From Serripes groenlandicus (taxonomy: Eukaryota; Mollusca; Bivalvia; Cardiida; Cardiidae): a DNA stretch of 64,000 nt. Made by a program: the position numbers and the translations under genes. Below, piece by piece: positions 1,984 through 30,405 of this stretch. The stretch is from NCBI GenBank assembly GCA_031761405.1, contig JASEVX010000003.1, positions 113,773,831 to 113,837,830 on the forward strand. The letters run 5' to 3'. Below the pieces are notes generated by a model, which was not told where the DNA came from, made no database searches, and saw only the letters and a program-made list of their open reading frames with translations. How positions within the stretch are numbered: position 1 is the stretch's first letter; each line of letters opens with the position of its first letter.

Positions 1984-2018
1984 AACTTTCTAGTTCTCTG
2001 GTTGCCCTAAAAAGGGCA
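1984..2018 (-). terminator. Histone-type 3' stem-loop and downstream element (left gene)
   Basis: On the minus strand the sequence after the 102-aa gene reads TGCCCT, loop TTTT, AGGGCA (2018 to 2003), followed directly by ACCA and, 12 nt after the stem, GAAAGTT (1990 to 1984). This is the layout of replication-dependent histone mRNA 3' ends: a 6-bp stem with a conserved second G-C and last U-A pair, a 4-nt U-rich loop, an ACCA flank and a purine-rich downstream element. The stem starts 25 nt after the stop codon. No AATAAA is seen nearby. The function is inferred from structure. Confidence 0.7.
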
Positions 2019-2043
2019 TTTTGTTTTGGGGGTTGTTGTAGAA

Positions 2044-2352
2044 CTAATGTTCACAGCCCCCAACTTTTCGACAGGCAGGACACATTGACTGTGCCCGCCT
2101 GACGATCCGCTTCACGGCCAAAGCTGAATACCCCGAAGTTGGGTTAAATGGTGGCTCATCATCATCATCCCAATTCTCTGTCTCCGGGATAGTGTGATGA
2201 ACCATCTTCGGGGAGTTGAATGGCGTATATGGTGCCTCCTCTGTCTTCTTCTCTTCCGTGTGCTTCAGTTGAATTTGAAGCAGCTCCATCTGATCGCTTA
2301 TAGCTTTCAGCTGAGCTGCCATCAAAGCTACCTGATCTCGGAATTGATCCAT
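2044..2352 (-). CDS. Small coiled-coil protein with C-terminal CX2CX5CXH motif
   Basis: A 102-residue protein read outward from the left end of the element. Residues 1-35 are heptad-like and probably form a short coiled coil. An acidic, proline-rich middle follows (WDDDDEPPF), then a basic patch and the C-terminal motif CPACRKVGGCEH, which could bind zinc. The 88-aa gene at the right end has the same plan and the same cysteine/histidine spacing, so the two look like diverged paralogues. A TATA box lies 33-39 nt upstream of the ATG, and a histone-type stem-loop follows the stop. I do not recognise a named family. Small outward-facing genes of this kind in adintoviruses are often accessory or early regulators, but that role is inference. 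Confidence 0.65.
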   Translation of the reverse strand: MDQFRDQVALMAAQLKAISDQMELLQIQLKHTEEKKTEEAPYTPFNSPKMVHHTIPETENWDDDDEPPFNPTSGYSALAVKRIVRRAQSMCPACRKVGGCEH

Positions 2353-2384
2353 GATTTAGTGAAAATGAAATAACTTTAGCGTGG

Positions 2385-2391
2385 TTTTATA
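2385..2391 (-). promoter_or_regulatory. TATA box of the left small gene, at a hAT insertion site
   Basis: The minus strand reads TATAAAA 33-39 nt before the ATG of the 102-aa gene. The hAT element inserted exactly here and its 8-bp target duplication (TTTTATAC, 2385-2392 and 3350-3357) contains the TATA sequence, so the gene keeps a TATA box but loses its native upstream DNA. Confidence 0.6.
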
Positions 2392-2392
2392 C

Positions 2393-3349
2393 TAGGGATG
2401 GCAACGGTTACCGATATTACTAACCGGTTACTCGTACAATTCTGTAACCGGTTACCCGGTTAACCGTATAGATTCATAGACAATAACTATCCCCTGTTTT
2501 AGTCGAATATGGTTGCACATGTTACTGGTTCCACCAGTCCAAGACAGTTCATTACCACACAAACTGCACTTGACTTTGTTATCATCAGCACAGCGTTTTA
2601 AATATTTCCAGACAAAGGATGTAGCAGGCGGCATTATGGCAATATATTCTGTAGATCTTTTTTAACGAAGTGACTGTTATACGATTTATGATATGTCGAA
2701 TGGTCATCATCATCATATTGGGTTTATTTACCCTCGCCTTTCGGCATAAAGCCATTTGGCGAGCTAATGTCGAATGGTAATAATAATATTTTGGTTTTAT
2801 TTACCCTCGCCATGCAGAATTAACTATTTGGCGAGCATTCGAATGGTACATAGCTGCATATCTTTAAATACCAACTCAGGGGGAAATGTGTTACAAACTT
2901 ACTCTTTAAATCTTCTAATCGTGTTGGTAAATAATAATTTACAAAAACAACAATTGAAATGTATCACACTACTCCAATTAAATGTATTATCAAAACAAAC
3001 GCCGCATTTATTTAATAAGTCATTATCTTATAATTTCTGCCTTTATTGGACATCAAACTTTTTTTTAAAAGAAACAAAGCGTCCTTTAATTGACAATTAC
3101 ACAAACAAACAAGCATCAAAACAATCGAGTGCGGCTGTTATCGTAGTAATGTAAACACTGGCCGATCGAGGTGTGAATAATTAACCTCTCATGTCAGATA
3201 CGTGTGACAAATTGAAAAGAACAAAAGGTGAAACACAACTGTGTATATATTTTATCTTTTCTTCCGAGTACTCGGTTACCGAAATTACTAACCGATTAAT
3301 CGGAAAACGTACGGTTAACCGGGTAACCGATTAATCGTTGCCATCCCTA
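2393..3349. mobile_element. Non-autonomous hAT transposon (957 bp) with 8-bp target duplication
   Basis: The ends are the inverted repeats TAGGGATGGCAACG and CGTTGCCATCCCTA, and the element is flanked on both sides by TTTTATAC. An 8-bp duplication and TAGGG...-type ends are typical of hAT elements. Subterminal DNA is rich in inverted CCGGTTA/TAACCGG motifs (2400-2465 and 3265-3335), plausible transposase binding sites. Inside are a broken BED zinc-finger fragment and a tandem pair of about 70 bp (near 2697 and 2766) containing TTTATTTACCCTCGCC. The element cannot encode a full transposase. It sits between the two divergent left genes of the Polinton, so it arrived after the Polinton integrated or was present in that lineage. 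Confidence 0.88.
2452..2634 (-). pseudogene. hAT transposase N-terminal fragment with BED zinc finger
   Basis: A 60-residue frame inside the hAT element. Residues 7-43 match the BED finger pattern of hAT transposases: VWKY at 8-11, then C23 and C26, a GTSN turn at 35-38 and H42. The second histidine expected a few residues after H42 is not seen and the frame then drifts and stops, so this is a remnant rather than a working protein. Confidence 0.7.
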
Positions 3350-3418
3350 TTTTATACTATTGAGCGCGGACGTGATCTAAACTACCTTTGTGTTAAATCT
3401 TTAAAGATTTAAAGAAAT

Positions 3419-3505
3419 AGGTCAGTGGGTCAGTAGGTCACTTTAAACATAATGTTTTTTCAACTTTGACGATTTATTAACTTAGGTCAGTAGGTTAGTA
3501 GGTCA
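3419..3505 (+). promoter_or_regulatory. Two triple arrays of AGGTCA half-sites (DR2 spacing)
   Basis: Positions 3419-3440 hold AGGTCA, GGGTCA and AGGTCA, each separated by GT. Positions 3484-3505 hold AGGTCA, AGGTTA and AGGTCA with the same GT spacers. Direct repeats of this hexamer with a 2-bp spacer are classic nuclear-receptor sites (DR2). They lie just upstream of a TATA-like TTTATATA (3516-3523) and the ATG at 3559. A plain 8-bp tandem repeat is the alternative reading. A single AGGTCA also precedes the TATA box of the right-end gene (30025-30030). Confidence 0.5.
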
Positions 3506-3558
3506 TGAAATTATCATTTATATACCACTCTTTCGATTTAAAATTCTATTCTTCAACT

Positions 3559-3831
3559 ATGAACCGATTAGTGAAATTCTTCCGTCGGCTGTTTGGCTGT
3601 GAAAAGAAATCAGATAAGAAAATGAAGGAGCTAAAGAAAGATATTGAGCAGATTATGGTTACATTCTATTTAAGACGAGGGTATGATTACCATACTAGGC
3701 AACCTGCAGTGAAGATGGGTAATCTCTACCCTGATTTGTCGGAGTTCATACCTTCAACAATGAACTGTGCTTGGCAAGGTAAACTTGTCAAGCAATATCC
3801 TTGCTTGAAGTCATCGTTTGAAAATTATTAA
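3559..3831 (+). CDS. Small basic protein of the left end (90 aa), unknown function
   Basis: The open frame begins at 3505, but I choose the ATG at 3559: a TATA-like TTTATATA lies about 40 nt before it, as for the other element genes, and the upstream ATG would fall before the transcription start. The first 30 residues are strongly basic with an amphipathic helix (RLVKFFRRLF), then a lysine-rich stretch, then an ordinary C-terminal half ending in an aromatic residue. No zinc motif is present, unlike the two terminal genes. The stop is followed after 22 nt by a histone-type stem-loop. It is divergent from the 102-aa gene. Function unknown; early accessory protein is inference. Confidence 0.6.
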   Translation: MNRLVKFFRRLFGCEKKSDKKMKELKKDIEQIMVTFYLRRGYDYHTRQPAVKMGNLYPDLSEFIPSTMNCAWQGKLVKQYPCLKSSFENY

Positions 3832-3853
3832 ACGATGACTTAAGCAGGAAAAA

Positions 3854-3889
3854 AGTCCTTTTTAGGACTACCAAATATCTCGAAAAGTT
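3854..3889 (+). terminator. Histone-type 3' stem-loop and downstream element (90-aa gene)
   Basis: AGTCCT, loop TTTT, AGGACT (3854-3869) is followed immediately by ACCA and, after 12 nt, GAAAAGTT (3882-3889). Compared with the other two copies, stem positions 1 and 3 differ but pairing is kept by changes on both sides, which supports an RNA structure. The following TTTTTCAAATTGTCA is also shared with the copies near 1960 and 30420. Confidence 0.7.
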
Positions 3890-4081
3890 TTTAACTTTTT
3901 CAAATTGTCATTTTTTTACTATTTGGATTATGAAAAAAAACATAATGTATTTTTTTGAACTTTTATTTCATCTTAAGATAAAATATACACAATGAAAGTG
4001 AATGTCTATACACAATGAGAGAAACAAAAACAGTTCAAAAAGATGTCACTTATATTTTACATTTTTGAAAAAATGAAAATG

Positions 4082-4883
4082 TCAATTTCCCTTTCTTTTC
4101 TTTGTTGGATTTTCGGTCTCTGTGGTACTTTTCCGTTTCCTGGGTTTGATTGGTTTTACCACAATATCTGGGCAGATTTTCTGTTTGTGTTTGTCTGTTT
4201 TGCAAATAAAACAGTTCTGTTTCTTCAACTTTGTTTTTTCATCGGTTTGAGCATCCATTTTTTCATTGGATTGATCTGATGGTGTTATTTGATCTAAGAC
4301 AGTTTTTTCATTGGATTGATCTGATGGTGTTATTTGATCTACGACAGTTTTTTTTATCGGGTTGATCTGTTTGCGTTACTTGATCCATGATGTCTGGTGT
4401 TTTTTTAACTGAAGTAGAGTTCCATTTTTGTTGGTAAGTTCTCAAGCAATATCGATTGTAGTCATTGCAAAAAGATGTAAAAGCTCCAACAAAAATCATG
4501 TCTTGCTTCACTATAGGTGTGCGATAAAGGGCTGACTGCATGGTGATATCATGAGTGTGTGGGTTTACATACACAAACTGATATTTTGTAATCTGATTAT
4601 CTTTCTCTGGACATTTACTGGCCCAGTGATCTTCTTTGTGACAGATAAAACAGAAATTGGGTCTTTTTCCATTTGGTCCATACATGTCGTCGATACTGAT
4701 TCTGTCAAATACTCTGTGTTTACCAATTCTGTATTCATCGTCCTCTAATGCCTGGAAAGAAGCAAAAGATCCAACATATGCCCCCACATGTCTGATCGGG
4801 TAAGTTGTTGGTATGTTAGTGATCTCATATTCATGTGTATATGCGTTTACGTACACATACATTCTTGACATATTTCTAGCCAT
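4082..4883 (-). pseudogene. Zinc-knuckle protein with duplicated modules, one frame break
   Basis: The intact frame (191 aa, 4883 to 4308) holds two similar modules, residues about 9-43 and 104-138, each with YVN..TH and ending VGA..(T/G)SF. Between them is a CCHC zinc knuckle, C78-X2-C81-X4-H86-X4-C91. The frame stops at 4308. An adjacent frame then runs on to 4082 and encodes a second CX2CX4HX4C knuckle (about 4165-4215) and a lysine-rich tail. The switch point is a run of eight T (eight A on the coding strand) near 4346-4353. A homopolymer length error, a true mutation or recoding could each explain it. CCHC knuckles suggest single-stranded nucleic-acid binding. The gene is divergent from the polymerase. 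The equivalent part of copy 2 is lost in the gap, so it cannot arbitrate. Confidence 0.65.
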
Positions 4884-4884
4884 G

Positions 4885-5026
4885 CTGAATTAATGATGTT
4901 ATCACTCTGAATAGTTCAGACTGTATGATAACCAGTACTGATAATCACCTTTCTTTTATAGGAGTATGACAGACAACTGTTATATAACTCATGGATGTCA
5001 TCCATTTACAATTAGTCTCTAACAAA
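4885..5026. promoter_or_regulatory. Divergent promoter between zinc-knuckle gene and DNA polymerase
   Basis: On the plus strand TATATAA lies at 4981-4987, about 40 nt before the polymerase ATG at 5027. On the minus strand a TATAAAA sequence (complement of 4954-4960) lies about 70 nt before the start of the zinc-knuckle gene. Confidence 0.45.
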
Positions 5027-8000
5027 ATGTCGAAGAGAATTGTACCGTATTCAGACAGTAGTGAAAGCGACGACGATGATGATGATGATGATGATGATGA
5101 TTTCCCACCAAAACGACGAAAGCATAGAAAACTTGCTATACTTGATTCAGACGATGAGGACGATGAACTTGACTTGATTAAAAAGAAACCTGTAAAAATG
5201 ATAGAAGAAAACAATGAAGAAGATACATCTGACATCAAACATTTATTTCATCTACAACATTCTTTGAATAAGAAATCTCGTAAATTCAAGACTGAATCGC
5301 ATGTAATGACTGCAACTTTCAAGAAATTTGAAGAATTACCACCACGAGAATTGATAAAACTGTTTGGCAATATTACAGAGGAAATCAAATCAACTTTGAA
5401 AACGGAACCTACCGATAAGATTAGAATTACTATTAATCATCCATCTTTAAACATGGGGATTTACATTCCATTTATGAATGCTAGTCAGCTAGAAGGTGTA
5501 ATCATGTTGAATGAAATTGAAAAAGTATTACAATCAAACACAGAGTTCAGTCTGACCGATGGACGCATGACTTTTATCATTACACACGCTCATCCTTCAT
5601 CTGGTGATGGAAAGAAAAAGAAGTTGAATTCAACAGAAATTCTGGATTCAAAAATCTTTGCTAAAAACATGCAATCCATTATACAAATCAATAATGACAA
5701 TGACAGTATGTGCTTTGCAAGAGCTTTAGCAGTTGGTATTTGTCATGTGAATCACCATGACACAGATGACTGGAGATTGAAATGGAATCAAATAAGAAGG
5801 TCCGATCGACAACTTCAAAAGAGTGACGCTGAAGACATCCTGATGAAAACAGGGATTTCACCAAATCAATCTTGTGGACTAGACGAGTATAGGATCATAC
5901 AGACATTTCTCTATGCAGAGGACTATGTTATTAAAGTACACAACCAGCATACTTCTGTAGAGTTCGTCTTTGAACACCCTGTTGTGTACAGACAAAGTAA
6001 AGTACTTCATTTGTATTATCATCAAGGTCATTACGACTACATTTCTAGTATAACTGGGTTTTTTGGTTGTAGCTACTATTGTGAGTTCTGTGATGTTGCA
6101 TATCAAAATCGTGAAAGCCATTCTTGTTTACACAATTGTAAAGCATGCTTTACCATAGGAAAGTGTATGTCATTTGAGACATCAAAACAATGTAAAGATT
6201 GTAACAGATTTTTCTATGGTTCAGAATGTTTTCACAATCATAAGATAGTAGTTGGAAAACAGAAGAAATCCATTTGTCAACTTGTGAAATCTTGTTTGAA
6301 ATGTGGAGGTCAATATAAAGTCAGAAAAGCGCTACACGTTTGTAAAGGTATGAAAAAATGCCGATACTGTCAAAAAATAACTATCTTATCTCATAGGTGT
6401 CATATTCAACCTTACAAAAGAAAGTTGAATAAGACAGACGATAAAGCCAGTACTACAGGAAAGAAAAAGCCACTGTTTATATTTTATGATTTCGAATGCA
6501 AACAAGATACAGGTGTTCATATCCCTAATTACTGTATTGCTCATTATGCATGTGATGAATGCATCAATGAATCTCTTGATTTTCATTGTTCAACTTGTAA
6601 CACATCATTTTCAAAAGAAAGAGAAGTTGTATTTCAAGGAGTAAATACATTGACTGATTTTTGCAACTGGTTGTTTTCTGATCAACATAAAGGCATCACA
6701 GCTATTGCTCACAATTTTAAAGGATATGACGGTCAATTCATTTTACATCAAGTCATTTCACTTGGAGTGAAACTCCCAAAGTTAATCATGAATGGAAACA
6801 GTATCATGAAACTGGAATTGAATGGAGTTCGTTTAATTGATTCATTTAATTTCATGAGCTGTGCATTGGCTAAGTTCCCAGATACATTTGGTCTTCATGA
6901 AATGAAAAAAGGTTACTTTCCCCATTGGGCAAATACAGATCAGTTCTGTAGTTATGTTGGACCTTATCTTGATGTCAAATATTACAAGCCTGACTCAATG
7001 TCTAAAGAAGGAAGAGAAAAATTCATGGTCTGGTATAATGAAAAAGTAGAACAGAGTGTCATTTTTGATTTTCAGAAAGAGATAGAGTCTTATTGTAGGT
7101 CTGATGTTGATATCCTTAGACGAGGATGTGGACAATTCAGAAAAGTGTTCATGAAACATGGTGGTATCGATCCGCTTTTAGAGTCAGTTACTATTGCAGA
7201 TGCTTGCAATAAGGTATGGAGACAGAATTATTTACCAAAAGGTAAAATTGCTATTATTTCAAGTAAGGATCCATCCCAACGTCGTTTTTCTATGAAAGCA
7301 ATACGGTGGATACAAAGCATAGCTAATGAAAAGAGTATTTACATTCAGCACGCTAGAAATGATGGAGAATTCAGAATTGGTAGATATAGTGTAGATGGTT
7401 ATCATGAGAAGACAAACACAGTCTATGAATTCCTTGGGGACTTGTATCATGGTTGTCCAGTTTGTTACCCAAAACGAAATCAGTTAAGTCCTATCACTGG
7501 TGAGACTATGCAACATTTATACAATAGTACAATGAATCGTCTTGAGGAAATTAAAGTTAAAGGTTTCAATGTTGAAATTATGTGGGAACATGAATTCGAT
7601 GCTAAGATTAAAAATGACAAAGTCTTCAAATCCAAAATTAACAAGTTGTTTCCCTATTGTGACCCCATTGACCCAAGAGAGGCTTTGTATGGAGGTCGAT
7701 GTAATTCAGTGAAAATTACTCATGATATTAATGAAAGTAAGGACAAAGAAATCAAGTACATTGATATTTGTTCTTTGTACCCCTTTGTTTGTAAACACAA
7801 ATCTTATCCGGTTGGACACCCAAAAGTTATAACCGCTGAGAGTATTGATATGGAAAATATTCGTCAGTATGAAGGATTGATTAAATGCAAAGTTTCACCA
7901 CCAGATGATTTATTACACCCCGTTTTACCTGTTCATTGCAATAATAAATTGATGTTTCCTCTCTGTATGAAATGTGCACAAGAAAGTTCCAATACTTGCA

Positions 8001-9034
8001 ATCATAATCAGGATGAAAGATCAATGGTTGGAACGTGGATAACATTTGAATTGTTCAAAGCTTTAGACATGGGGTATCAATTGATTCATGTGTATGAAAT
8101 TTGGCATTTTACTTCGATCTCAAATCAATTCTTTCAAGGGTATGTAGATAACTTCTTGAAAATCAAGCAGGAAGCTAGTGGTTACCCCGGTTGGTGTAAG
8201 TCTGATTCGGAAAAGCAGAAGTTCATTCATGATTATGAAAAAGCAGAAGGTGTCAAACTTGACTCATCTTCCATTCAGAAAAATCCAGGTCTTCGATCTT
8301 TTGCAAAGATCATGTTGAATTGTCTTTGGGGAAAATTGGCTCAGCGAGAAATCATGAGTCAAACTGAGTACATTAAAGATGCAACAAAGTACTTTGAAAT
8401 GATGAATAACTCAAATGTTCTTGTGAAACATGTTGAAATATTTGATAATGAGTGTGATTTCATACTGGTGAATTATGAGACCAAGTTAGATCACATTGAA
8501 ACCCATGCTACAGCCAATGTTATAGTGGGTTCCTATGTGACAGCGTATGCAAGAATGGAACTGTACAGTATCTTAGAAAAATTAAAATCAAGAGTATTGT
8601 ACTTTGACACAGACAGTTGTATGTACATTCATGATCCATGCTTATGGAATCCACCCATTATTAATAGCAGACTAGGAAAATGGACAGATGAAGAGCCAGA
8701 TTGTACAATTGTCAAATTCAGAGGACTAGGTCCAAAAAATTATGCTTATGAAATGAAAACAAAAGAAGGAAAAAGAGAAACTAAATGTAAAGTGAAAGGA
8801 ATCACATTGGATTATAATACCTGTCAATTGATCAACTTTGAAACATTTACACAATGTGCTGAAGATCGTAACACAGAAATAAAAGTGACCTATGCGTGTA
8901 GAATTAAAAGACATACCGACAGATCTGTGACAAGTGAAGCTCAAACAAAAACGTACAGATCAGTGTATACAAAAAGAGTAATTGTCAATGATACGGACAC
9001 TGTTCCATATGGGTACAAATCTCTGCGTCAATAA
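5027..9034 (+). CDS. Protein-primed family B DNA polymerase (Polinton type)
   Basis: Replicates the element's linear DNA from a protein primer. The frame opens at 4991, but I prefer the ATG at 5027: the TATA box at 4981-4987 would start transcription after the first ATG, and the second has A at -3. In the 1347-residue numbering from 4991, an acidic/basic N-terminus leads to an OTU-like patch (D238, C241 in MCFARAL, H347 in GHYDYI) and a cysteine-rich zinc region (about 355-475). The 3'-5' exonuclease motifs follow: D500-F-E502, NFKGYD 575-580, YCRSD 701-705. Polymerase motifs are DICSLYP 925-931 (A), K1106...N1110...GK1115 (B) and YFDTDS 1204-1209 (C). All metal-binding acidic residues are present, so the gene looks intact. 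Family assignment is firm; the OTU reading is inference. Confidence 0.95.
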   Translation: MSKRIVPYSDSSESDDDDDDDDDDDFPPKRRKHRKLAILDSDDEDDELDLIKKKPVKMIEENNEEDTSDIKHLFHLQHSLNKKSRKFKTESHVMTATFKKFEELPPRELIKLFGNITEEIKSTLKTEPTDKIRITINHPSLNMGIYIPFMNASQLEGVIMLNEIEKVLQSNTEFSLTDGRMTFIITHAHPSSGDGKKKKLNSTEILDSKIFAKNMQSIIQINNDNDSMCFARALAVGICHVNHHDTDDWRLKWNQIRRSDRQLQKSDAEDILMKTGISPNQSCGLDEYRIIQTFLYAEDYVIKVHNQHTSVEFVFEHPVVYRQSKVLHLYYHQGHYDYISSITGFFGCSYYCEFCDVAYQNRESHSCLHNCKACFTIGKCMSFETSKQCKDCNRFFYGSECFHNHKIVVGKQKKSICQLVKSCLKCGGQYKVRKALHVCKGMKKCRYCQKITILSHRCHIQPYKRKLNKTDDKASTTGKKKPLFIFYDFECKQDTGVHIPNYCIAHYACDECINESLDFHCSTCNTSFSKEREVVFQGVNTLTDFCNWLFSDQHKGITAIAHNFKGYDGQFILHQVISLGVKLPKLIMNGNSIMKLELNGVRLIDSFNFMSCALAKFPDTFGLHEMKKGYFPHWANTDQFCSYVGPYLDVKYYKPDSMSKEGREKFMVWYNEKVEQSVIFDFQKEIESYCRSDVDILRRGCGQFRKVFMKHGGIDPLLESVTIADACNKVWRQNYLPKGKIAIISSKDPSQRRFSMKAIRWIQSIANEKSIYIQHARNDGEFRIGRYSVDGYHEKTNTVYEFLGDLYHGCPVCYPKRNQLSPITGETMQHLYNSTMNRLEEIKVKGFNVEIMWEHEFDAKIKNDKVFKSKINKLFPYCDPIDPREALYGGRCNSVKITHDINESKDKEIKYIDICSLYPFVCKHKSYPVGHPKVITAESIDMENIRQYEGLIKCKVSPPDDLLHPVLPVHCNNKLMFPLCMKCAQESSNTCNHNQDERSMVGTWITFELFKALDMGYQLIHVYEIWHFTSISNQFFQGYVDNFLKIKQEASGYPGWCKSDSEKQKFIHDYEKAEGVKLDSSSIQKNPGLRSFAKIMLNCLWGKLAQREIMSQTEYIKDATKYFEMMNNSNVLVKHVEIFDNECDFILVNYETKLDHIETHATANVIVGSYVTAYARMELYSILEKLKSRVLYFDTDSCMYIHDPCLWNPPIINSRLGKWTDEEPDCTIVKFRGLGPKNYAYEMKTKEGKRETKCKVKGITLDYNTCQLINFETFTQCAEDRNTEIKVTYACRIKRHTDRSVTSEAQTKTYRSVYTKRVIVNDTDTVPYGYKSLRQ

Positions 9035-9043
9035 TATGAATTG

Positions 9044-9101
9044 TATAAAAGATGTGAATAAAATAAGATAACTTTATTCTTGTGTTGTTATTTCTTCTCA
9101 G
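9044..9101 (+). promoter_or_regulatory. TATA box, poly(A) signal and candidate 3' splice site before the ATPase
   Basis: TATAAAA (9044-9050) and AATAAA (9057-9062) follow closely after the polymerase stop, consistent with the end of one transcript and start of the next. A pyrimidine-rich TGTTATTTCTTCTCAG ends at 9101, 17 nt before the ATPase ATG, and would make a good 3' splice acceptor. Confidence 0.4.
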
Positions 9102-9118
9102 ACCTTTAAAGAGTTAAC

Positions 9119-9784
9119 ATGGATGCCGATATTCAGTCCATATTATTTCAGCACCCCTGTAATATGTATATCACAGGGCCTAGTGGATGTGGAAAAACAG
9201 AATTTGTTCATAAACTGATTGAATATAGAAATGATCTGTTCAACATTGTACCAGAAAAAGTGGTATGGTGTTACAAAGAATGGCAACATGCTTACAATGT
9301 TATGCAAGAGAAATTCGAAATCATAAAATTCATTGAAGGTATTCCCGACGATGAAAATGAAATTGTAAGTGATGTTGACATTCCACATTTAGTTGTCTTT
9401 GATGACATGTTAGGGGAAAAAGATGAAGATAAAATCAAGTTATGGTTTACAAGAAAAGGTCATCATAGGAATGCTAGTGTGATTTATATCACACAAAACA
9501 TGTTTCAACAGTCCAAGTCGAGCCGAACCATTAGTTTGAATTCAAAATACATGATCTTGTTTCAAAATGTACGTGATAAGAATCAAATAAAGACTTTGGC
9601 AAATCAAATGCAAGCACCTCATTTGATAATGGCCTACCAAGATGCTACATCTAAAGATCATGGGTATTTGGTGATTGATTTTCATTCTCGTACTCAAAAG
9701 GAGATGAAACTAAGAACGGATATATTTCACAGATGGTTTACACAAAATGAAGATCGTGGACCTATTGTTTATTCTCCACTATAA
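9119..9784 (+). CDS. FtsK/HerA-type genome-packaging ATPase
   Basis: A 221-residue P-loop ATPase of the A32-like branch found in Polintons and related double-jelly-roll viruses; it would drive DNA into the capsid. Walker A is GPSGCGKT at residues 20-27, Walker B is LVVFDD at 91-96, and ITQNMFQ near 128-134 fits the downstream sensor region of the family. The length is typical for Polinton ATPases. It follows the polymerase by 84 nt and precedes the structural genes. No defect is visible. The assignment is confident; copy 2 (22025-22690) encodes the same protein. Confidence 0.92.
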   Translation: MDADIQSILFQHPCNMYITGPSGCGKTEFVHKLIEYRNDLFNIVPEKVVWCYKEWQHAYNVMQEKFEIIKFIEGIPDDENEIVSDVDIPHLVVFDDMLGEKDEDKIKLWFTRKGHHRNASVIYITQNMFQQSKSSRTISLNSKYMILFQNVRDKNQIKTLANQMQAPHLIMAYQDATSKDHGYLVIDFHSRTQKEMKLRTDIFHRWFTQNEDRGPIVYSPL

Positions 9785-10974: not shown

Positions 10975-10979
10975 GAACA

Positions 10980-22690: not shown

Positions 22691-22747
22691 AACACTTATG
22701 ATGAGAAGATCAACATTCATTTATCTTGGTCAGGTCTTTGTGTAAAC

Positions 22748-23458
22748 ATGGCTATACCACACACTTCAAAGTCAGTGATTCATGCCTTACAAAACCTAAG
22801 TCATGAAACCAACAAACATGCCAGAGAAGCTTTACTCAAAGCAGGGTTAAAAGAAATATTAAAATGGTTTACTTTGGCTGCTAAAAACATTGTTGGTCAT
22901 AAAATCAAATTACCGAAACAGACGGTTACATACATGACGAAACATAAAGATGACATACATAAGTTAGCCAACCCTGAGATTGATGAAGAAGTCAAGCGAA
23001 AAATTATTCTTAAACCTGGCGGAGGAGGGTTTCTTGGTGGTGTTATAATTAGAAGCTTGTTACGATGGAACGGAGAAAAGACAGCTCGTAAATTTGGTGT
23101 TGACAAACAAAGGAAAAAGCCGTCCAAAAAAAGAAATGACCGATATGTCATCGATGAAAGATTTATTACAATGAGAAAAAAAACCAGAAATAAAACAAAA
23201 ACAAAAACCAAGAAAAAAGATTTGAAGAAAAAAACACCTAAAAGTCAAAAAAGACAAAAACAAGTTCGGACAATGACACCACGTAAACAAATACAGTTTC
23301 AATCTATTCCTTCTTCAAGTGGACTTGGTACTCCTCCATACACAGCATCCCGTGCTACGGACTTGTACGATATTGCACCATTTTCGCCGCTGACAACTGT
23401 ACCACTTTCATCATCAGCAAGAACAGCTTTAGGTGCTTTGTATTCACGATTTGCATAA
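22748..23458 (+). CDS. Basic virion-core candidate, copy 2
   Basis: Same 236-residue protein as at 9842-10552, including the PGGGG segment and lysine-rich block. No difference was noticed. Confidence 0.68.
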   Translation: MAIPHTSKSVIHALQNLSHETNKHAREALLKAGLKEILKWFTLAAKNIVGHKIKLPKQTVTYMTKHKDDIHKLANPEIDEEVKRKIILKPGGGGFLGGVIIRSLLRWNGEKTARKFGVDKQRKKPSKKRNDRYVIDERFITMRKKTRNKTKTKTKKKDLKKKTPKSQKRQKQVRTMTPRKQIQFQSIPSSSGLGTPPYTASRATDLYDIAPFSPLTTVPLSSSARTALGALYSRFA

Positions 23459-23514
23459 AAGTATTGCAATGAAAAGAAATAGATCATTTTACTTCAGACA
23501 GAGATAGTGTCAAC

Positions 23515-23880
23515 ATGGGTAAACAGAAATCACCACTCATTAGAAAACATGGATCAATGGTAATGGCCATGATACAGTCACCACACAACGTGAGAAAAAA
23601 GCTAATAAACGCAGCTAATCGTCCTGTCATTGATTGTGTTTCGGAATGTTGTCACAACGTTTTAAAAGGCAATGTTCATCTGACCAAGGCTCATAAGACT
23701 AAGTTACATCCAATCCGTCAACAACTCAGACAAATTGCATCGAAATCGGTTTCCATTAAGAAAAAGAAACGAATTCTTAACCAGAAAGGAGGATTCCTAC
23801 CGTTGCTTGCAGGAGCCTTATTACCATTGTTAGGAAAAGCTGTTATCGGGGGACTTGGTGGTGTGCTGAAATCACTGTAA
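23515..23880 (+). CDS. Small basic protein with hydrophobic tail, copy 2
   Basis: Same 121-residue protein as at 10609-10974. Confidence 0.68.
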   Translation: MGKQKSPLIRKHGSMVMAMIQSPHNVRKKLINAANRPVIDCVSECCHNVLKGNVHLTKAHKTKLHPIRQQLRQIASKSVSIKKKKRILNQKGGFLPLLAGALLPLLGKAVIGGLGGVLKSL

Positions 23881-23885
23881 GAACA

Positions 23886-24752
23886 ATGTCAGTCAGAAAA
23901 ATGGTTATTGTACCTTATCAAATCTTAGAGGATATGAAACGTCAAAAACAAAGACCTCGATTACCACCAAATCCACAAGTAGCAGATGTAGTACATCTAC
24001 AAAATAAGATGTCGGGTATATTGGAAACGTCAGATATGTCAGAAACAGAAAAGGTGCAAAAGTACGGTGAAACTTTATTCAAGTTACAGAACTCATTGAA
24101 AAAGGCTCAATCATGGTCACAACCATCACAACAACATACAACTACCCCATCAAATTCTGAACCTAATTCAATGCATGACCGAATATTACAAAGCGTTCCT
24201 AAAACCATGCAAAGGAAAGCTGAATTACTTTTAAACATGGTCAAAGAAAATGAAAATCTTGTTTGGGATAATCACGGTGTTGTTTCATACAAAGGTAAAC
24301 GACTTCCTGGCTCAAATATCATTGATTTAATCAATGATTCATTAAGACTTAGAAAAGGTATTGAACCAAGAGGCTGGGAAACTTTTTCAAAGGCTTTACA
24401 TGAAAGCAACGTACCACAAGAAGTTATTGGTAATCAAGCAAGATGGAAATGGATGCATAAACGAAACATACATGATGATAAAGCCGACGAAAGTGAATCT
24501 GATGATTACAGTACTCCTACGAAATCACCACCATCTGCAAAAATGAAAAAACAAGTTCATTTTGATAATGATTACAGTACCCCAAAAAAATCACCATCTT
24601 CTGCAAAAATGAAAAAACAAGTTCGAGCAATGACACCCTACACGCAACCTGGTGAAAGAGATCGTCTTAGGGAATTTTACAGAAAAGAATTAACTACCCC
24701 TATAAAGCAAGAAGCAAGTACTTCAAAACGTCAGACATGGGAATCATACTAA
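23886..24752 (+). CDS. Conserved 288-aa Polinton protein, copy 2
   Basis: Same protein as at 10980-11846; the two Ser/Thr-Pro/Lys repeats and the 16-nt overlap with the integrase gene are kept. Confidence 0.68.
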   Translation: MSVRKMVIVPYQILEDMKRQKQRPRLPPNPQVADVVHLQNKMSGILETSDMSETEKVQKYGETLFKLQNSLKKAQSWSQPSQQHTTTPSNSEPNSMHDRILQSVPKTMQRKAELLLNMVKENENLVWDNHGVVSYKGKRLPGSNIIDLINDSLRLRKGIEPRGWETFSKALHESNVPQEVIGNQARWKWMHKRNIHDDKADESESDDYSTPTKSPPSAKMKKQVHFDNDYSTPKKSPSSAKMKKQVRAMTPYTQPGERDRLREFYRKELTTPIKQEASTSKRQTWESY

Positions 24753-25861
24753 AGAAGAAGCATCAGAAACTTGATTTCGTTTTAAGAAAATTGTATTACA
24801 ACATAAATAGTTCTGTAGCCTATTCTAGTATTAAGCAGCTGTATCATGCTGCAAAGTACGTTTTGAAGGGTGTGAAATATCAGGATGTAAGGGAATGGTT
24901 ACAAGGAGAAACAACATTTACTTTACATAAACCTATACGTAGACGTTTCAAAAGACGTAGAACTATTGTGGCTGGTATTGATCAACAATGGCAAGCTGAT
25001 TTAGCAGACATGCAACATTTAGCTAAACAAAATGACAACAAAAAGTATTTACTTTGTGTTATTGATGTATTTTCTAAGTTTTCCTGGGTTGTTCCTATTC
25101 CAAATAAAACTGGTAAAACGTTAATTGTTGCATTTCAATCCATACTTCAGAAATCAAAAAGAACCCCGATTTCTTTGCAAACGGATAAAGGTACGGAATT
25201 CAAAAACAAAGAATTTCAACAATGGTTAAAACGAAATCGAATTCATTTTTTTACTACTGAAAACCCTGAAACAAAAGCAAGTATTGTTGAAAGATTTCAA
25301 AGAACTTTGAAAACACGTATGTGGAAATATTTCACTCACATGAAAACAAAGCGTTACATTGATATTCTGGAAAAATTAGTAAAGAATTACAATAATACTT
25401 ATCACAGAAGTATCAAATCAAATCCTGCATCTGTTAATCAAACTAATGAAGCTGAAATTTCAGAGAATCTATACCCTCAGAATCCCGTTTCAAATAAAAA
25501 AGCAAAATTCAAAATAGGAAACCGTGTACGAATTAACAAAACAAAACGAACATTTGAAAAAGGTTATCTTCCTAACTGGACACTGGAATTATTTGAAATT
25601 GTACATGTAAATAAATCAACTTCTCCAGTAACATATGTCGTTAAAGATTTAGACGGTGAGCAAATCTTGGGCACGTTTTATGAACCTGAATTACAATTCA
25701 TAAAAGATGATGAAATCTATGACATTGATTCAGTTCTTGCAAAGCGAACAAGACGTAAAGGTAACAAAATAGTCAGAGAAATAAAGGTTAATTGGAAAGG
25801 ATATCCTACCAAATTTCAAAGTTGGATTCCAGAATCATATCTTGTTAATAAAAAGTCATGA
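24737..25861 (+). CDS. Integrase with chromodomain, copy 2
   Basis: Same 374-residue protein as at 11831-12955, with the D88, D150, E185 triad and chromodomain intact. Confidence 0.92.
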   Translation: MGIILKKKHQKLDFVLRKLYYNINSSVAYSSIKQLYHAAKYVLKGVKYQDVREWLQGETTFTLHKPIRRRFKRRRTIVAGIDQQWQADLADMQHLAKQNDNKKYLLCVIDVFSKFSWVVPIPNKTGKTLIVAFQSILQKSKRTPISLQTDKGTEFKNKEFQQWLKRNRIHFFTTENPETKASIVERFQRTLKTRMWKYFTHMKTKRYIDILEKLVKNYNNTYHRSIKSNPASVNQTNEAEISENLYPQNPVSNKKAKFKIGNRVRINKTKRTFEKGYLPNWTLELFEIVHVNKSTSPVTYVVKDLDGEQILGTFYEPELQFIKDDEIYDIDSVLAKRTRRKGNKIVREIKVNWKGYPTKFQSWIPESYLVNKKS

Positions 25862-26166
25862 CGCTAGACAAGCGTTCACAGTCTAACATTGAAGTTGGAA
25901 CAGAAAGTATCGACGATAGTCGATCAACACCGTATAATTGCTGCGGAAATCGTGTTCCTAAAAATCAGTTCACGTACATTTCACAAATCATTGTTATTTA
26001 TACAATCATTGTAACGTCCATAATACATCTCAGTCTTAGAACAGAAAATCACGAATTGTGGTTAATTCTTTTAAGTAGTTCATTAGGTTATATTCTACCA
26101 TCACCAGGTTTGAAATATACAAAACAGGGTAAACAAACGTTTGATCTTATTGATGGTAAAAGATGA
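25858..26166 (+). CDS. Two-span membrane protein, copy 2
   Basis: Same 102-residue protein as at 12952-13260, with ATGA overlaps at both ends. Confidence 0.72.
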   Translation: MTLDKRSQSNIEVGTESIDDSRSTPYNCCGNRVPKNQFTYISQIIVIYTIIVTSIIHLSLRTENHELWLILLSSSLGYILPSPGLKYTKQGKQTFDLIDGKR

Positions 26167-27050
26167 ATTCATTTTATCTTACATTACCGAGTGACAGTTC
26201 TATGGATTACTTTCCAAGTAATACACAATGTTGTTTTAAAGTCAAGTTACCGAAAACAATTCATATTGGAAAAGAACAATGGGAAGTTGCAATAGCTCAA
26301 CTAATTACACCGTCACAATTTTTAAACATATCTGAGAAAGAAGCAGAATTTGAAATAATCACACGTGATGTAGAGCTTCAAAAACTACTTGTTAAATATA
26401 CTAAGAAATTGCCACCAGTATTACCAATAGACCATGATGTATCTAATACACCAAACAAGTGGTCAATGAAATTCACTTTGGCTGCGGGGTCCTATTCATC
26501 ACCATCACATGTGCTGAATGTTGTAAATGAAATAATACAAAATATGATAGGTGACATACTATCAAAAAATCAATCTGCTTTGATTATCGAATATTCAAAA
26601 AAAACAAAACGTCCAAAACTTGGATTTACTAAAATTATTAAAACAGGGATAAAACTTCATCCATCATTGTTTTTGAAATTCGGTGGATCACCAGAATTCA
26701 AAGGTAATACAATTTATCCGGGGAAAAATAGTTTACAAATGTTTAAGTACAATGCAAATATTGATGCAGGATATAATCATTTGTTTATCTATTCAGATAT
26801 TGTTGAATACTCTATCGTTGGTGATACATTAGCCCCTATACTTCGTGTCGTTCCATTCAAATCATCCAATTCTGATGAAAATAATGATAGTCAACATATC
26901 AATCATGAAATAATGAATTTACATTATGTCCCTGTCTCAAAATCGGAATTCGATACAATTCATATCAATATAACTGGTGATTCTGGTTATCCTGTTCATT
27001 TTGTTATTGGCAAGACAATCGCAAAGTTACATTTCAGACAGGTTCACTAA
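26163..27050 (+). CDS. Penton-like protein candidate, copy 2
   Basis: Same 295-residue protein as at 13257-14144. Confidence 0.68.
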   Translation: MNSFYLTLPSDSSMDYFPSNTQCCFKVKLPKTIHIGKEQWEVAIAQLITPSQFLNISEKEAEFEIITRDVELQKLLVKYTKKLPPVLPIDHDVSNTPNKWSMKFTLAAGSYSSPSHVLNVVNEIIQNMIGDILSKNQSALIIEYSKKTKRPKLGFTKIIKTGIKLHPSLFLKFGGSPEFKGNTIYPGKNSLQMFKYNANIDAGYNHLFIYSDIVEYSIVGDTLAPILRVVPFKSSNSDENNDSQHINHEIMNLHYVPVSKSEFDTIHINITGDSGYPVHFVIGKTIAKLHFRQVH

Positions 27051-27074
27051 AGTGTGGGTTAACCAATACCAAAA

Positions 27075-27455
27075 ATGATGCCTGTATATAGAGGTGTAAA
27101 ACACCAGTATGGGTATGGACTAGGTTCATTATTTAAATCAGCACTCAGAACCGTTACACCACTACTAAAACCTTTAGTCAAATCTGGATTGAATGCTTTA
27201 AAGAAGGAGGGTATTAAACAAGGAATAGGTGCAGCTCAAGATATTTTCTTACATGGAAAAAATCCAAAAGCTGTATTGATATCGCGTGGAAAAGAATCAG
27301 TAAAAGATCTGGCACAGAATCTTATAGGTGGAATAAATAAGCCTAAAACGAGACAGTCTCGTCATTTAAAGTCTCGAACTCCTAGGGGTAAGATCGTTTC
27401 AAAGAGACATAAGAAACATTACAGTAAACCTAGAACTTTAGACGTGTTTGATTAA
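27075..27455 (+). CDS. Small basic amphipathic protein, copy 2
   Basis: Same 126-residue protein as at 14169-14549. Confidence 0.63.
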   Translation: MMPVYRGVKHQYGYGLGSLFKSALRTVTPLLKPLVKSGLNALKKEGIKQGIGAAQDIFLHGKNPKAVLISRGKESVKDLAQNLIGGINKPKTRQSRHLKSRTPRGKIVSKRHKKHYSKPRTLDVFD

Positions 27456-27472
27456 AGAAACCAGTATTAAAA

Positions 27473-28780
27473 ATGATGCAAAGTGGGTCTTGTGAGTGTA
27501 GTAAATCAGAACTTGATGTTCTGTCTGTGCCACCAACGATGACAACAATGCAAGAAAGTCAATGGGTTGAGCATTTTCCTGTAGCATCTTTAGGAAACAA
27601 TTCACCGATAGAATTCATCATTCCATCTCAGACAGAGTGTTGGACAGATTTGTCACAGTCTTATTTGTATGTTAAATTCAAAATTACAAAAGCAGATGGT
27701 ACTGACTTAGATGCAGATTCTAGTGTTGCCCCAACAAACAATTTTCTTCACAGTATGTTTAGCAGTGTTGATCTGTATTTAAACAATAAATTGGTCAGCT
27801 GTAATTTGGACACATACCCGTACAGAGCATATATTGAAAATCTTCTGTCATACAATACTGATAGTAAAGTCACTCATCTAAGGGCTAGTGAGCTTTGGAT
27901 TAAAGACACTGCTGGAGCATTCGATGCATTAGCTCATGATGGTGCCAACGATGGATTAAAAAAAAGATTGGCTGTAATAACAGAAAGCAGAACCACAGAG
28001 TTGTGTGGACGAATTCATCTTGATATGTTTCATCAAGAGAAATATTTACCAAATGGTATTGAAATGCGATTAAAGCTCAATAGATCTTCTTCAACCTTCT
28101 GTCTTACAGGTGAAGCCGGGTCACCACAATCAAAAGTTGTGTTTGAATCAGTTAGTTTCAATGTAAGAAATGTTGAAATACTACCAGTCATTGCAAATGA
28201 TCTAAATCAAGTCATTGCACAGCAAAACATGAAAATACCAATTCGTAGAGTTGAAGTTAAAACGTTTACAGTCGGAACTGGTCTTCAGTCTAAAGTTGAA
28301 GATCATTTGTTCCAAGGACAATTACCAAAACGTATTTTCATTGGTATGGTACGAAATGATGCTTTAAATGGGGTTTTTACACGAAATCCATTCCATTTTC
28401 AACACTTTAATCTGTGTAAACTAAATGTTTCATGTAACGGTCATAGTATTCATAACAGACCATTTGAACCTGATTTCGAACATGGCCTTTTTCTTAAGTC
28501 ATACCTGTCGCTACACCAGGCTGCCTCGGCTATTGGCGCTAATAAATCATTTGACATAACTAAAGCTGAGTTCGAAGCTGGCTATGCATTGTGGGGGTAT
28601 GATCTGACAGCAGATCAAGGCAGTGAAGAAGGACAGCTACATCCTATAAAAACAGGGAGCCTCAGAATTGAACTTCAGTTTGGTACGGCACTTCCAAGAG
28701 TCATCAACGTTATTGTCTTTGCTGAATTCGATAATCAGATAGAAATCAACGGCTTAAGAGAAATCATCACAGATTACTGA
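27473..28780 (+). CDS. Major capsid protein, double jelly-roll (F54H12.2-like), intact
   Basis: A 435-residue protein and the best version of the capsid gene in the window. The N-terminus (SGSCECSKSELDVLSVPPT) and the conserved run of SPIEFII, YLYVKFKIT and NTYPYRAYIENLLSY-type segments (the last here as DTYPYRAYIENLLSY, about 111-125) match the family often labelled uncharacterized protein F54H12.2-like in invertebrate genomes, which is the hexon-like major capsid protein of Polintons. Further conserved-looking segments are ELWIKDTAG (about 142-150) and the C-terminal RVINVIVFAEFDNQIEI. The jelly-roll fold is inferred from family. It lies between the small basic protein and the 151-aa gene. 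Confidence 0.88.
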   Translation: MMQSGSCECSKSELDVLSVPPTMTTMQESQWVEHFPVASLGNNSPIEFIIPSQTECWTDLSQSYLYVKFKITKADGTDLDADSSVAPTNNFLHSMFSSVDLYLNNKLVSCNLDTYPYRAYIENLLSYNTDSKVTHLRASELWIKDTAGAFDALAHDGANDGLKKRLAVITESRTTELCGRIHLDMFHQEKYLPNGIEMRLKLNRSSSTFCLTGEAGSPQSKVVFESVSFNVRNVEILPVIANDLNQVIAQQNMKIPIRRVEVKTFTVGTGLQSKVEDHLFQGQLPKRIFIGMVRNDALNGVFTRNPFHFQHFNLCKLNVSCNGHSIHNRPFEPDFEHGLFLKSYLSLHQAASAIGANKSFDITKAEFEAGYALWGYDLTADQGSEEGQLHPIKTGSLRIELQFGTALPRVINVIVFAEFDNQIEINGLREIITDY

Positions 28781-28818
28781 AAAAAGAAATCATCACAGAT
28801 TACTGGAAAAAAGAAATC

Positions 28819-29274
28819 ATGGCCGGTCATGAATTGGCGATTCTACTTAGAGATGAAGCTTTCAAAGTGAAATATTCTTCAGCCGCTGTCAGTGAAAAAA
28901 GGAGAAAGGACATTTACAATTCTCTTGAAAAAATCATAATAGATGAATTACAGACACTTATCGCTGAAGAAGTACATAACAATTGTCATGGGTGTCTCAT
29001 AGATCATCCAAGTCAAATGCAACATCAACTTTGCCTCTTCATGGACAGACATGATCATACAGATATGTTCGTTGCCACAGCAATGCATAGGATTAATCCA
29101 AACAAGATCATGGAGAAATGGTATCCTGTAATAGAAGAAATGGCATTGAAAGACTCAGAAATTGTAGTAGCCTACAAAATGTGGTTGAATATTAAACAGA
29201 ATGTTATCAATGGGTTTCCTGATTTATGGATTGAACAGTGGGGTGAGAAAGTCAAACAGGCCTGGGGAAAGTAA
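28819..29274 (+). CDS. Conserved 151-aa Cys/His protein, copy 2
   Basis: Same protein as at 15921-16376; the C/T change at 29139 is silent. Confidence 0.68.
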   Translation: MAGHELAILLRDEAFKVKYSSAAVSEKRRKDIYNSLEKIIIDELQTLIAEEVHNNCHGCLIDHPSQMQHQLCLFMDRHDHTDMFVATAMHRINPNKIMEKWYPVIEEMALKDSEIVVAYKMWLNIKQNVINGFPDLWIEQWGEKVKQAWGK

Positions 29275-29768
29275 TGCATACTCATGAAATACAATACATA
29301 CTGGATCATGGAACTTGGATAAAAAACCTTCATGCACAAGTTTGTGCTAAAGATCAATTACCAAAACAAAAACCAGACAGTGTACAAGCTTACATTGTCA
29401 ATACAGACTCATCTGACAGATCTGGTGAACATTGGATAGCAGTGATCTTTAACAGAAATGGAGAATCAACATACTTCGATTCATATGGATTACCACCACT
29501 CGACACAGAAATTATGAGCTTTATCCACAATAACTCATCATCATGGACATACAACAAACAAGTTATTCAAAGTTTGTTGGGTGTAGTGTGTGGATATTAC
29601 TGTATATTTGTACTGAATGCAGTAGCGAGAGGAAACAATCTACAGAAATGTCTACAACAAACATTTAGGACAACCGAACATCACAGAAACGATCGAAATG
29701 TAACCATTTGGTTCAAACAGATTTATGGAAAAACAATACATGAAAAGACTTTAAAAACTTTATTGTAA
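29274..29768 (+). CDS. Adenain-like protease, copy 2
   Basis: Same 164-residue protein as at 16376-16870, with H53, D69 and C110 intact. One silent T/A change lies within the YG-L codons after the acidic motif. AATAAA at 29834-29839 would end the transcript. Confidence 0.88.
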   Translation: MHTHEIQYILDHGTWIKNLHAQVCAKDQLPKQKPDSVQAYIVNTDSSDRSGEHWIAVIFNRNGESTYFDSYGLPPLDTEIMSFIHNNSSSWTYNKQVIQSLLGVVCGYYCIFVLNAVARGNNLQKCLQQTFRTTEHHRNDRNVTIWFKQIYGKTIHEKTLKTLL

Positions 29769-29970
29769 AATTTATTGTAAAAACTGTATTGTAAATATGT
29801 TGTTCACTGTTCATAGTTCATAGTTCATAGTTCAATAAAAAGTTCATTTAATCATAAATCTTTGTGTTTGTTTTTTTTTATATTCCTAAAAACAATCCAT
29901 AATATGACATAGCTTACCAGAAAAAAATTGAAAACATGTATTTACACTAGGTTGTACCCCCAAACTTTTC

Positions 29971-30052
29971 ATTGGATGACGTTCGATGCATTTCATTGGT
30001 CAAGCTTAATTCTGAGTCAAAAGTAGGTCAATCCGACCTATCGGTATAAATA
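29971..30052 (+). promoter_or_regulatory. Promoter of the right-end gene: CCAAT boxes, CRE-like site, AGGTCA and TATA
   Basis: Inverted CCAAT boxes (ATTGG) lie at 29971-29975 and 29995-29999, with TGACGT at 29977-29982 between them. AGGTCA follows at 30025-30030 and TATAAATA at 30045-30052, 41 nt before the ATG at 30093. Paired CCAAT plus TATA is also common in replication-dependent histone promoters, which fits the stem-loop at the 3' end of the same gene. Confidence 0.6.
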
Positions 30053-30092
30053 GCAGAACGTCATTTCATTCCATACACTCCTCGATATCAGC

Positions 30093-30359
30093 ATGGAATT
30101 ACACAAAGAACTCAGGAATGTTGCAGATGATCTCAGAAATATTCTTCAACGACTCATCAATATTTATCGTCAACTCATAGAAGGACAACCCAGAGAGAAT
30201 GTTACGCTTCAACACCAACAACCAGATGTGGTGTATTTAGGCATTGAAATGAAAAGAAGAGTTCATTGGGATGGAGAGGGAAAATTGACAGTAACTAAAA
30301 GAAGGAGAAACAAGTTCTGTCCAATTTGCAGAGCAAACTTTGGCTGTTGTCATCTGTGA
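30093..30359 (+). CDS. Small coiled-coil protein with C-terminal CX2CX5CXH motif (right end)
   Basis: An 88-residue protein read outward from the right end of the element. Residues 1-33 are heptad-like and probably coiled coil. A basic segment follows (KRRVHWDGEGKL, then VTKRRRNK), ending in CPICRANFGCCH plus one residue. Cysteine and histidine spacing is the same as in the 102-aa gene at the left end, and both share an N-terminal coil and a basic patch before the motif, so they are probably paralogues. It is preceded by a full TATA/CCAAT promoter and followed 9 nt after the stop by a histone-type stem-loop. Function unknown; an accessory regulator is inference. Confidence 0.7.
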   Translation: MELHKELRNVADDLRNILQRLINIYRQLIEGQPRENVTLQHQQPDVVYLGIEMKRRVHWDGEGKLTVTKRRRNKFCPICRANFGCCHL

Positions 30360-30368
30360 AAACAAAAC

Positions 30369-30405
30369 GGCCCTTTTTAGGGCCACACCACATACTTAGA
30401 AAGTT
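30369..30405 (+). terminator. Histone-type 3' stem-loop and downstream element (right gene)
   Basis: GGCCCT, loop TTTT, AGGGCC (30369-30384), then ACACCA and, 14 nt after the stem, GAAAGTT (30399-30405). This copy is closest to the metazoan histone consensus, including the GG...CC closing pairs and the preceding CAAAAC. The block after it (TTTTTCAAATTTGTCA) is shared with the other two copies. Confidence 0.75.

What the first reader, a model, noticed from the sequence alone, without database searches (positions are those of the whole stretch)
1984..30405. Histone-mRNA-type 3' ends on three small genes of a Polinton
Three separate small genes at the element's ends (stops at 2044 minus, 3831 plus, 30359 plus) are each followed within 9-25 nt by a 6-bp stem with a UUUU loop, an ACCA or ACACCA flank, and GAAA(A)GTT 12-14 nt after the stem. 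The stems are GGCCCT/AGGGCC, TGCCCT/AGGGCA and AGTCCT/AGGACT, so pairs 1 and 3 covary while the second G-C and the last U-A pair stay fixed; those fixed pairs are the ones known to matter for stem-loop binding protein. No AATAAA lies nearby, while the core genes do use AATAAA. This suggests the element borrows replication-dependent histone 3' processing for one class of genes, tying their expression to S phase. I know of no description of this for Polintons.
Basis: partly seen in the sequence, partly recalled or inferred. Interest (0 to 1): 0.88.

Follow-up and report, generated by a model that had tools for sequence, protein, structure and literature searches.

The report
Polinton genes dressed as histone genes
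A virus-like mobile element in an animal genome gives its small accessory genes, but not its core genes, end signals (and mostly start signals too) of the kind the animal uses for its histone genes, which suggests that it times them to the phase when the cell copies its DNA.

Summary
The 64-kb window holds exactly three strict histone-type stem-loops, one after each named gene; 200 shuffles average 0.09. Rfam Histone3 scores them 38.0, 27.7 and 22.4 bits; only the first passes the 34-bit cut-off.

Tools took it further. In an intact copy of this Polinton, 5 of 5 accessory genes and 0 of 12 core genes have the signal. The host's histone genes share the layout: stem-loop, purine element 12-16 nt on, ATTGTC box 29-35 nt on. 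Accessory genes also carry histone-type promoters: A and B align with the host H2B promoter over about 80 bp (62, 61; shuffle maxima 28, 29), D and E share H4-promoter repeats, C does not match, nor do 11 core genes. One of seven stray contigs with distant capsid relatives also has a Histone3 match after a small zinc-finger gene.

Best reading: histone-type, S-phase-linked expression of accessory genes. RNA ends, SLBP and U7 use are untested. A 2025 survey counted six such stem-loops in Polinton-like virus/virophage genomes without comment.

The parts
2044..2352 (-). Accessory gene E, 102 aa, tail CPACRKVGGCEH
   Evidence: paralogue of A (27-29% identity)
2003..2018 (-). Histone-type stem-loop of gene E, TGCCCT TTTT AGGGCA
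   Evidence: RF00032 22.4 bits when searched alone
1986..1993 (-). CTAGAAAG, downstream purine element of gene E
   Evidence: sequence
1964..1971 (-). AATTTGTC, distal box of gene E, shared with host histone genes
3559..3831 (+). Accessory gene D, about 90 aa from the inner ATG
3854..3869 (+). Histone-type stem-loop of gene D, AGTCCT TTTT AGGACT
   Evidence: RF00032 27.7 bits
3879..3887 (+). CTCGAAAAG, downstream purine element of gene D
3902..3909 (+). AAATTGTC, distal box of gene D
3483..3513 (+). AGGTCA repeats like the host H4 promoter, upstream of gene D
   Evidence: score 32 in the window copy, 37 in the intact copy against a shuffle maximum of 32
29987..30060 (+). Promoter region of gene A that aligns with the host H2B promoter
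   Evidence: score 67; in the intact copy 62 against a shuffle maximum of 28
30093..30359 (+). Accessory gene A, 88 aa, tail CPICRANFGCCHL
   Evidence: two homologues in the protein database
30369..30384 (+). Histone-type stem-loop of gene A, GGCCCT TTTT AGGGCC
   Evidence: RF00032 38.0 bits, above cut-off
30395..30403 (+). CTTAGAAAG, downstream purine element of gene A
30416..30424 (+). AAATTTGTC, distal box of gene A
4991..9034 (+). Core gene: DNA polymerase B; AATAAA/ATTAAA 22 nt after its stop
   Evidence: Pfam PF03175
11831..12955 (+). Core gene: integrase with chromodomain (second copy 24737-25861)
   Evidence: Pfam rve and Chromo
27473..28780 (+). Core gene: capsid-type protein used to find relatives
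   Evidence: 649 homologues; no Pfam match; 'capsid' by recall
29274..29768 (+). Core gene: adenovirus-type protease; polyA signal 65 nt after its stop
   Evidence: Pfam Peptidase_C5
30991..31001 (+). Right terminus CCCTTACTACT of the element
   Evidence: same terminus as in the intact copy

Best explanation
The accessory genes of this Polinton are expressed like replication-dependent histone genes. All five end in a stem-loop, a downstream purine element and (with few exceptions among copies) a distal ATTGTC box laid out as in the host's own histone genes; four of the five also have promoters like those of host H2B/H2A (A, B) or H4 (D, E). Likely working: host histone transcription factors switch them on in S phase; SLBP binds the stem-loop and the U7 machinery cuts the RNA instead of polyadenylation; the mRNAs make small regulatory proteins just when replication enzymes and nucleotides are plentiful. 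Core replication and capsid genes are not so marked. Shown: presence, layout, gene class, likeness to host histone genes. Inferred: SLBP/U7 use, S-phase timing, purpose.
For: Only three strict stem-loops in 64 kb, all after these genes. Intact copy: RF00032 after 5 of 5 accessory genes at 39.0, 39.0, 33.5, 27.9 and 27.7 bits, 0 of 12 core genes; a second copy has five hits with the same scores. Host histone units: 10 of 10 genes in two units have the stem-loop. Purine element plus box: 11 of 12 host, 3 of 3 window, 21 of 23 other Polinton sites, 1 of 40 control hairpins. 3' regions align with host H4 for 5 of 5 accessory genes (0 of 200 shuffles), not for 12 core genes. Promoters: A 62, B 61 with H2B; D 37, E 42 with H4; 11 core genes at background; 15 of 17 further A/B upstreams score 52 or more with H2B. 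Covariation in 10 distinct stems. Distant element L154, 35.8 bits.
Against: No RNA evidence of any kind. D, C and E stem-loops fall below the Rfam cut-off, and D folds no better than shuffles. Gene C has no histone-like promoter and a polyA signal at +114. D and E share one intergenic region, so their promoter matches are not independent. In the window copy gene E's upstream does not match (17) because of an insertion, and D scores only 32. Two of 17 A/B upstreams do not match H2B. U7 was not found (inconclusive, 65 of 447,508 candidates scored); the SLBP search did not complete. Six of seven stray contigs have no hit.
Confidence: 0.8

Rival explanations
1. Capture relic: the element once picked up histone gene flanks, which were then duplicated with the terminal repeats and persist without being used.
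For: A and B lie in the terminal repeats; the E gene 3' region aligns with H4 over about 85 positions; A, B and E look like paralogues.
Against: Genes C and D have other bodies and lie outside the repeats; pairs 1 and 3 of the stem change together; the same spacing recurs across copies; polyA signals are missing after A, B, D, E.
Confidence: 0.12
2. Dual ends: the genes can be processed both ways, histone-type in dividing cells and by polyadenylation otherwise.
For: Gene C has a polyA signal 114 nt after its stop; a bivalve paper notes polyadenylation signals in mussel H1 orphon genes (passage).
Against: No AATAAA/ATTAAA within 300 nt for A, B, D, E in the intact copy or A, D, E in the window.
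Confidence: 0.1
3. Plain DNA hairpins or transcription terminators of the terminal repeats, unrelated to histone processing.
For: A and B hairpins lie in the terminal repeats; hairpins of this core sequence are common in viral contigs (at least 120 matches).
Against: C, D and E hairpins lie inside; each follows a stop codon on the coding strand; control hairpins carry the flanking elements in 1 of 40.
Confidence: 0.03
4. The small genes are diverged histone genes that kept their own flanks.
For: Histone-like flanks on both sides.
Against: No histone family match for A, D, E or C, B, E; the model of A (pLDDT 55) shows one N-terminal helix and no fold.
Confidence: 0.02

Closest known systems
Replication-dependent histone genes (stem-loop, SLBP, U7 snRNP)
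   Same: Stem-loop, purine element and distal box at host spacing; promoter likeness to H2B/H2A and H4; no polyA signal near A, B, D, E
   Different: The proteins are not histones; the genes belong to a mobile element
Polinton/Maverick elements
   Same: PolB, integrase, A32-type ATPase, adenain-type protease; terminal repeats, AG..CT ends and 6-bp TTCGTA duplication in the intact copy
   Different: A class of accessory genes with histone-type control signals at both ends
Polinton-like viruses and virophages, ncRNA survey (PMC12220804)
   Same: Six histone 3'UTR stem-loop matches were listed in a PLV/virophage collection (section 16 read)
   Different: Given only as a count, none in cryptophyte PLVs; no link to genes, promoters or function
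Adintoviruses (animal viruses related to Polintons)
   Same: Some are reported to carry zinc-finger regulator genes (passage of PMC11071296), as in L154
   Different: The term stem-loop does not occur in that paper's main text; no adintovirus record could be scanned here

Membership tests
Polinton/Maverick element | PolB, retroviral-type integrase, A32-type ATPase and adenovirus-type protease | tested here: met
   Pfam PF03175 4.7e-48, rve 9.6e-16, Pox_A32 9.1e-8, Peptidase_C5 2.4e-5
Polinton/Maverick element | Capsid genes | tested here: inconclusive
   435-aa protein has 649 homologues but no informative name and no Pfam match; capsid identity is recalled
Polinton/Maverick element | Long terminal inverted repeats, AG..CT ends, 6-bp target duplication | tested here: met
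   Intact copy L158/L159: 912-nt alignment at 82%, ends and TTCGTA read from the output. In the window only the right end was found
Replication-dependent histone 3' end | Conserved stem-loop soon after the stop codon | tested here: met
   only genes A and B pass the Rfam cut-off, E, C and D are below it
Replication-dependent histone 3' end | Purine-rich downstream element at host spacing | tested here: met
   12-14 nt after the stem in 26 of 26 window and Polinton sites, 12-16 nt in 12 of 12 host sites, with a permissive pattern
Replication-dependent histone 3' end | Pairing of the downstream element with the host U7 snRNA | tested here: inconclusive
   No U7 match; 65 of 447,508 candidates scored and no control genome rang
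Replication-dependent histone 3' end | Absence of a polyA signal | tested here: met
   None within 300 nt for A, B, D, E; gene C has one at +114
Replication-dependent histone 3' end | Non-polyadenylated RNA ending after the stem; SLBP binding | not testable with these tools
   No RNA data; SLBP genome search not answered
Replication-dependent histone 3' end | S-phase expression | not testable with these tools
   Only indirect: promoter likeness
Histone gene | Encodes a histone protein | tested here: not met
   No histone family match; poor model with one helix for A

The most novel reading that the evidence does not exclude
A whole class of animal Polinton genes runs on the host histone-gene programme from promoter to 3' end, perhaps at the histone locus body. 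The element thereby reads S phase directly, and its regulators are made as non-polyadenylated mRNAs that poly(A)-based transcriptomes miss. The match in a distant element (L154) would make this a recurrent strategy of Polintons and possibly of their viral relatives.
Probability: 0.45. Interest if true: 0.92.

Novelty: new variant of a known kind. Interest (0 to 1): 0.87.

Why it matters
Histone-type promoters and 3' ends are textbook marks of histone genes. Finding both on a mobile element's non-histone genes would show that a selfish element can plug into the S-phase programme, would offer an answer to how Polintons time their replication, and would point to a class of transcripts that poly(A) sequencing overlooks. 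It is directly testable by 3'-end mapping. Comparing unrelated genes that share these signals also exposes two candidate host histone control boxes: the AGGTCA repeats and the distal ATTGTC box.

Tried and rejected
A U7-like segment in cis was tested and dropped. The distal box resembles the U7 Sm site AAUUUGUCU (given in PMC7026596, passages seen), and the stretch before it looks complementary to the purine element. The longest complementary run averages 4.3 against 4.25 for shuffles in 10 host sites, and 5.6 against 4.2 in 19 Polinton sites, of which 3 are individually below 0.05. With nothing in host genes, the idea is not supported; the box stays unexplained.

Relatives in viral contigs: four scans by protein gave none. 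A degenerate stem-loop pattern gave 3 contigs; none has a Histone3 match at the gathering score, and from the sequence around them I judge them chance matches. The homologue search for gene A gave 2 proteins on short contigs. The structure of A is too poor for a fold search. PHROGs and solved structures gave nothing informative for the small genes. Of ten further RF00032 places fetched, 7 show the stem by my rule, 3 do not.

Limits of the controls: the 29 Polinton loci L001-L030 (without L003) came from a stem-loop search, so having a stem-loop is by construction there; A test anchored on copies of protein A did not complete. In the covariation count two of five measures do not exceed shuffles (pairs changed on both sides 123/500, further pair types 402/500).

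Papers: listings; passages of PMC11071296, PMC6210712, PMC7026596 and PMC12220804; section 16 of PMC12220804. No whole paper was read.
Full report
Check of the observation. The three stops, distances, stems, loops and downstream GAAA are as described. A strict scan (6 Watson-Crick pairs, G second, T last, TTTN loop) finds three sites in the 64-kb window on both strands, the three named; 200 dinucleotide shuffles average 0.09 and none has the GAAA. RF00032 gives 38.0, 27.7 and 22.4 bits; only the first exceeds the 34-bit cut-off, and the last appears only when its surroundings are searched alone.

The setting. Of 120 listed relatives of the capsid-type protein few are named: five Mercenaria entries (60-64% identity), Crassostrea (42%), a sea cucumber and a periwinkle (43%). 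The host is therefore probably a bivalve; this is inference. The window holds PolB, ATPase, integrase and protease genes. Its core is present twice, 12.9 kb apart, with N between the copies (seen), so this copy is rearranged, in the genome or in the assembly. A 957-bp insertion with hAT-like ends and an 8-bp TTTTATAC duplication lies at 2393-3349 between genes E and D.

The intact copy. RF00032 over the genome scored 75 of 259,916 candidates; 74 matched, at least seven of them as outward-facing pairs 11-23 kb apart. Of the best 30 loci one is a host H2A gene (L003); of the other 29, 19 have a gene A- or B-type frame ending within 120 nt before the stem-loop (one of them truncated) and 10 have none. 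One pair was fetched as L158 and L159. It has an inverted terminal repeat aligned over 912 nt at 82%, AG..CT ends and a TTCGTA duplication. RF00032 hits follow five small genes: A 88 aa (39.0 bits), B 82 aa (39.0), E 109 aa (33.5), C 244 aa (27.9), D 91 aa (27.7). None of 12 core genes has the stem-loop. A polyA-type signal lies within 300 nt of 6 of the 12 core genes and of gene C (+114), and of none of A, B, D, E. A second copy (L161, L162) has five hits with the same scores; its frames were not listed. A and B, promoters included, lie in the terminal repeats; B and E are 27-36% identical to A. Genes B and C were not found in the window copy.

Host histone genes. PF00125 finds 71 matches, with repeated units; two units were read, each H3-H4-H2B-H2A-H1, and all ten genes end in the stem-loop. 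A CTAGA-type purine element follows 12-16 nt after the stem (CTAGAAAG in H2A and H1, CTAGAGAG in H2B, CTAGAATC in H4) and an ATTGTC box 29-35 nt after it. Both features occur in 11 of 12 unique host sites, 3 of 3 window sites, 21 of 23 other Polinton sites (box at 19-36) and 1 of 40 viral-contig hairpins of the same stem rule. The 3' regions of 5 of 5 accessory genes align best with host H4 (scores 38-73, no shuffle of 200 as high). With the stem-loop left out A, B and E exceed 500 of 500 shuffles; C is reached by 2 and D by 3. None of 12 core genes stands out (13 to 194 of 200 shuffles as high).

Promoters. Upstream of A and B about 80 bp align with host H2B (62 and 61; shuffle maxima 28 and 29) and less with H2A (47). 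ATTGG, AGCTTAATTCTGA, TAGGTCAATCC and ATAAATAGCA come in the same order. D and E, which share one intergenic region, have AGGTCA repeats like H4 (37 and 42; maxima 32 and 34). C (20) does not match, nor do 11 core-gene upstreams (18-28; the 295-aa gene is reached by 5 of 200); the upstream of the 102-aa gene was not tested. In other copies 15 of 17 unique A/B upstreams score 52 or more with H2B, two do not (36, 29; no shuffles run). In the window A scores 67, D 32, and E, cut off by the insertion, 17.

Covariation. In ten distinct stems (Polinton, host, distant, L201) pair 1 is G-C, A-U or U-A and pair 3 C-G or U-A; four pairs never change. No shuffle of 500 reaches the covariation score, though two cruder measures are not exceptional. 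Rows were chosen by stem-loop searches, so 100% pairing is partly by construction.

Beyond this genome. Capsid relatives among bacterial genome bins gave 7 loci, most likely stray animal DNA. L154 (8.9 kb, 30% identity, PolB on the other strand) has an RF00032 hit of 35.8 bits, 28 nt after an 89-aa C2H2 gene near the contig's edge and on its strand. An AAAAAAGAGA stretch follows 12 nt after the stem; there is no ATTGTC box. The other six have no hit at E<=1; L152 is decayed, and most contigs are short.

Reading. Parts, order, spacing and gene class match the host's histone genes at the 3' end for five genes and at the promoter for four, so histone-type expression is the simplest account. What the proteins do is unknown: A and E end in a C-x2-C-x5-C-x-H motif and match no known family. 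That they steer the cell or the element in S phase is a guess. Capture of host histone flanks, perhaps from an H4 gene for E, is a likely origin.

Novelty. Searches for Polinton with histone stem-loop (0 papers), Polinton with histone gene (6) and Maverick with histone, stem-loop and transposon (2) led to one relevant passage: PMC12220804, section 16, lists six histone 3'UTR stem-loops among ncRNA matches in PLV/virophage genomes, without comment. The motif has thus been counted before in the wider group; the gene class, the likeness to host histone genes and the promoters were not found described in these searches.

Noticed in passing
window 2393-3349: A 957-bp insertion with hAT-like ends (TAGGGATGGCAAC..GTTGCCATCCCTA) and an 8-bp TTTTATAC duplication separates genes E and D and cuts gene E off from the AGGTCA repeats.
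   Followed up: partly
window about 4700-30010: The Polinton core is present twice in direct orientation 12.9 kb apart, nearly identical, with a run of N near 17.1-17.4 kb: a tandem copy or an assembly artefact.
   Followed up: no
L193, L194 (host histone units): Host histone genes carry a conserved ATTGTC box about 30 nt after the stem and AGGTCA repeats in the H4 promoter; neither function is known to me.
   Followed up: partly
L201 507-522 (G000:C1:24659100-24659800): Another non-histone small gene with stem-loop, CTAGAAAG and ATTGTC box; no core Polinton gene in the few kb fetched around it and no histone-like promoter.
   Followed up: partly
L152 11734-11798: A sub-threshold type-P1 twister ribozyme match (28.9 bits, cut-off 67.2) just after the capsid-type gene on a contig filed with a Bathymodiolus symbiont.
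   Followed up: no
window 30495-31000: The terminal repeat region is made of nested inverted repeats of a GGTCTACCCTCCTT-type unit, 60-97% alike.
   Followed up: no
L151-L157: Animal-type Polinton contigs are filed within bacterial genome bins in a public species collection.
   Followed up: partly
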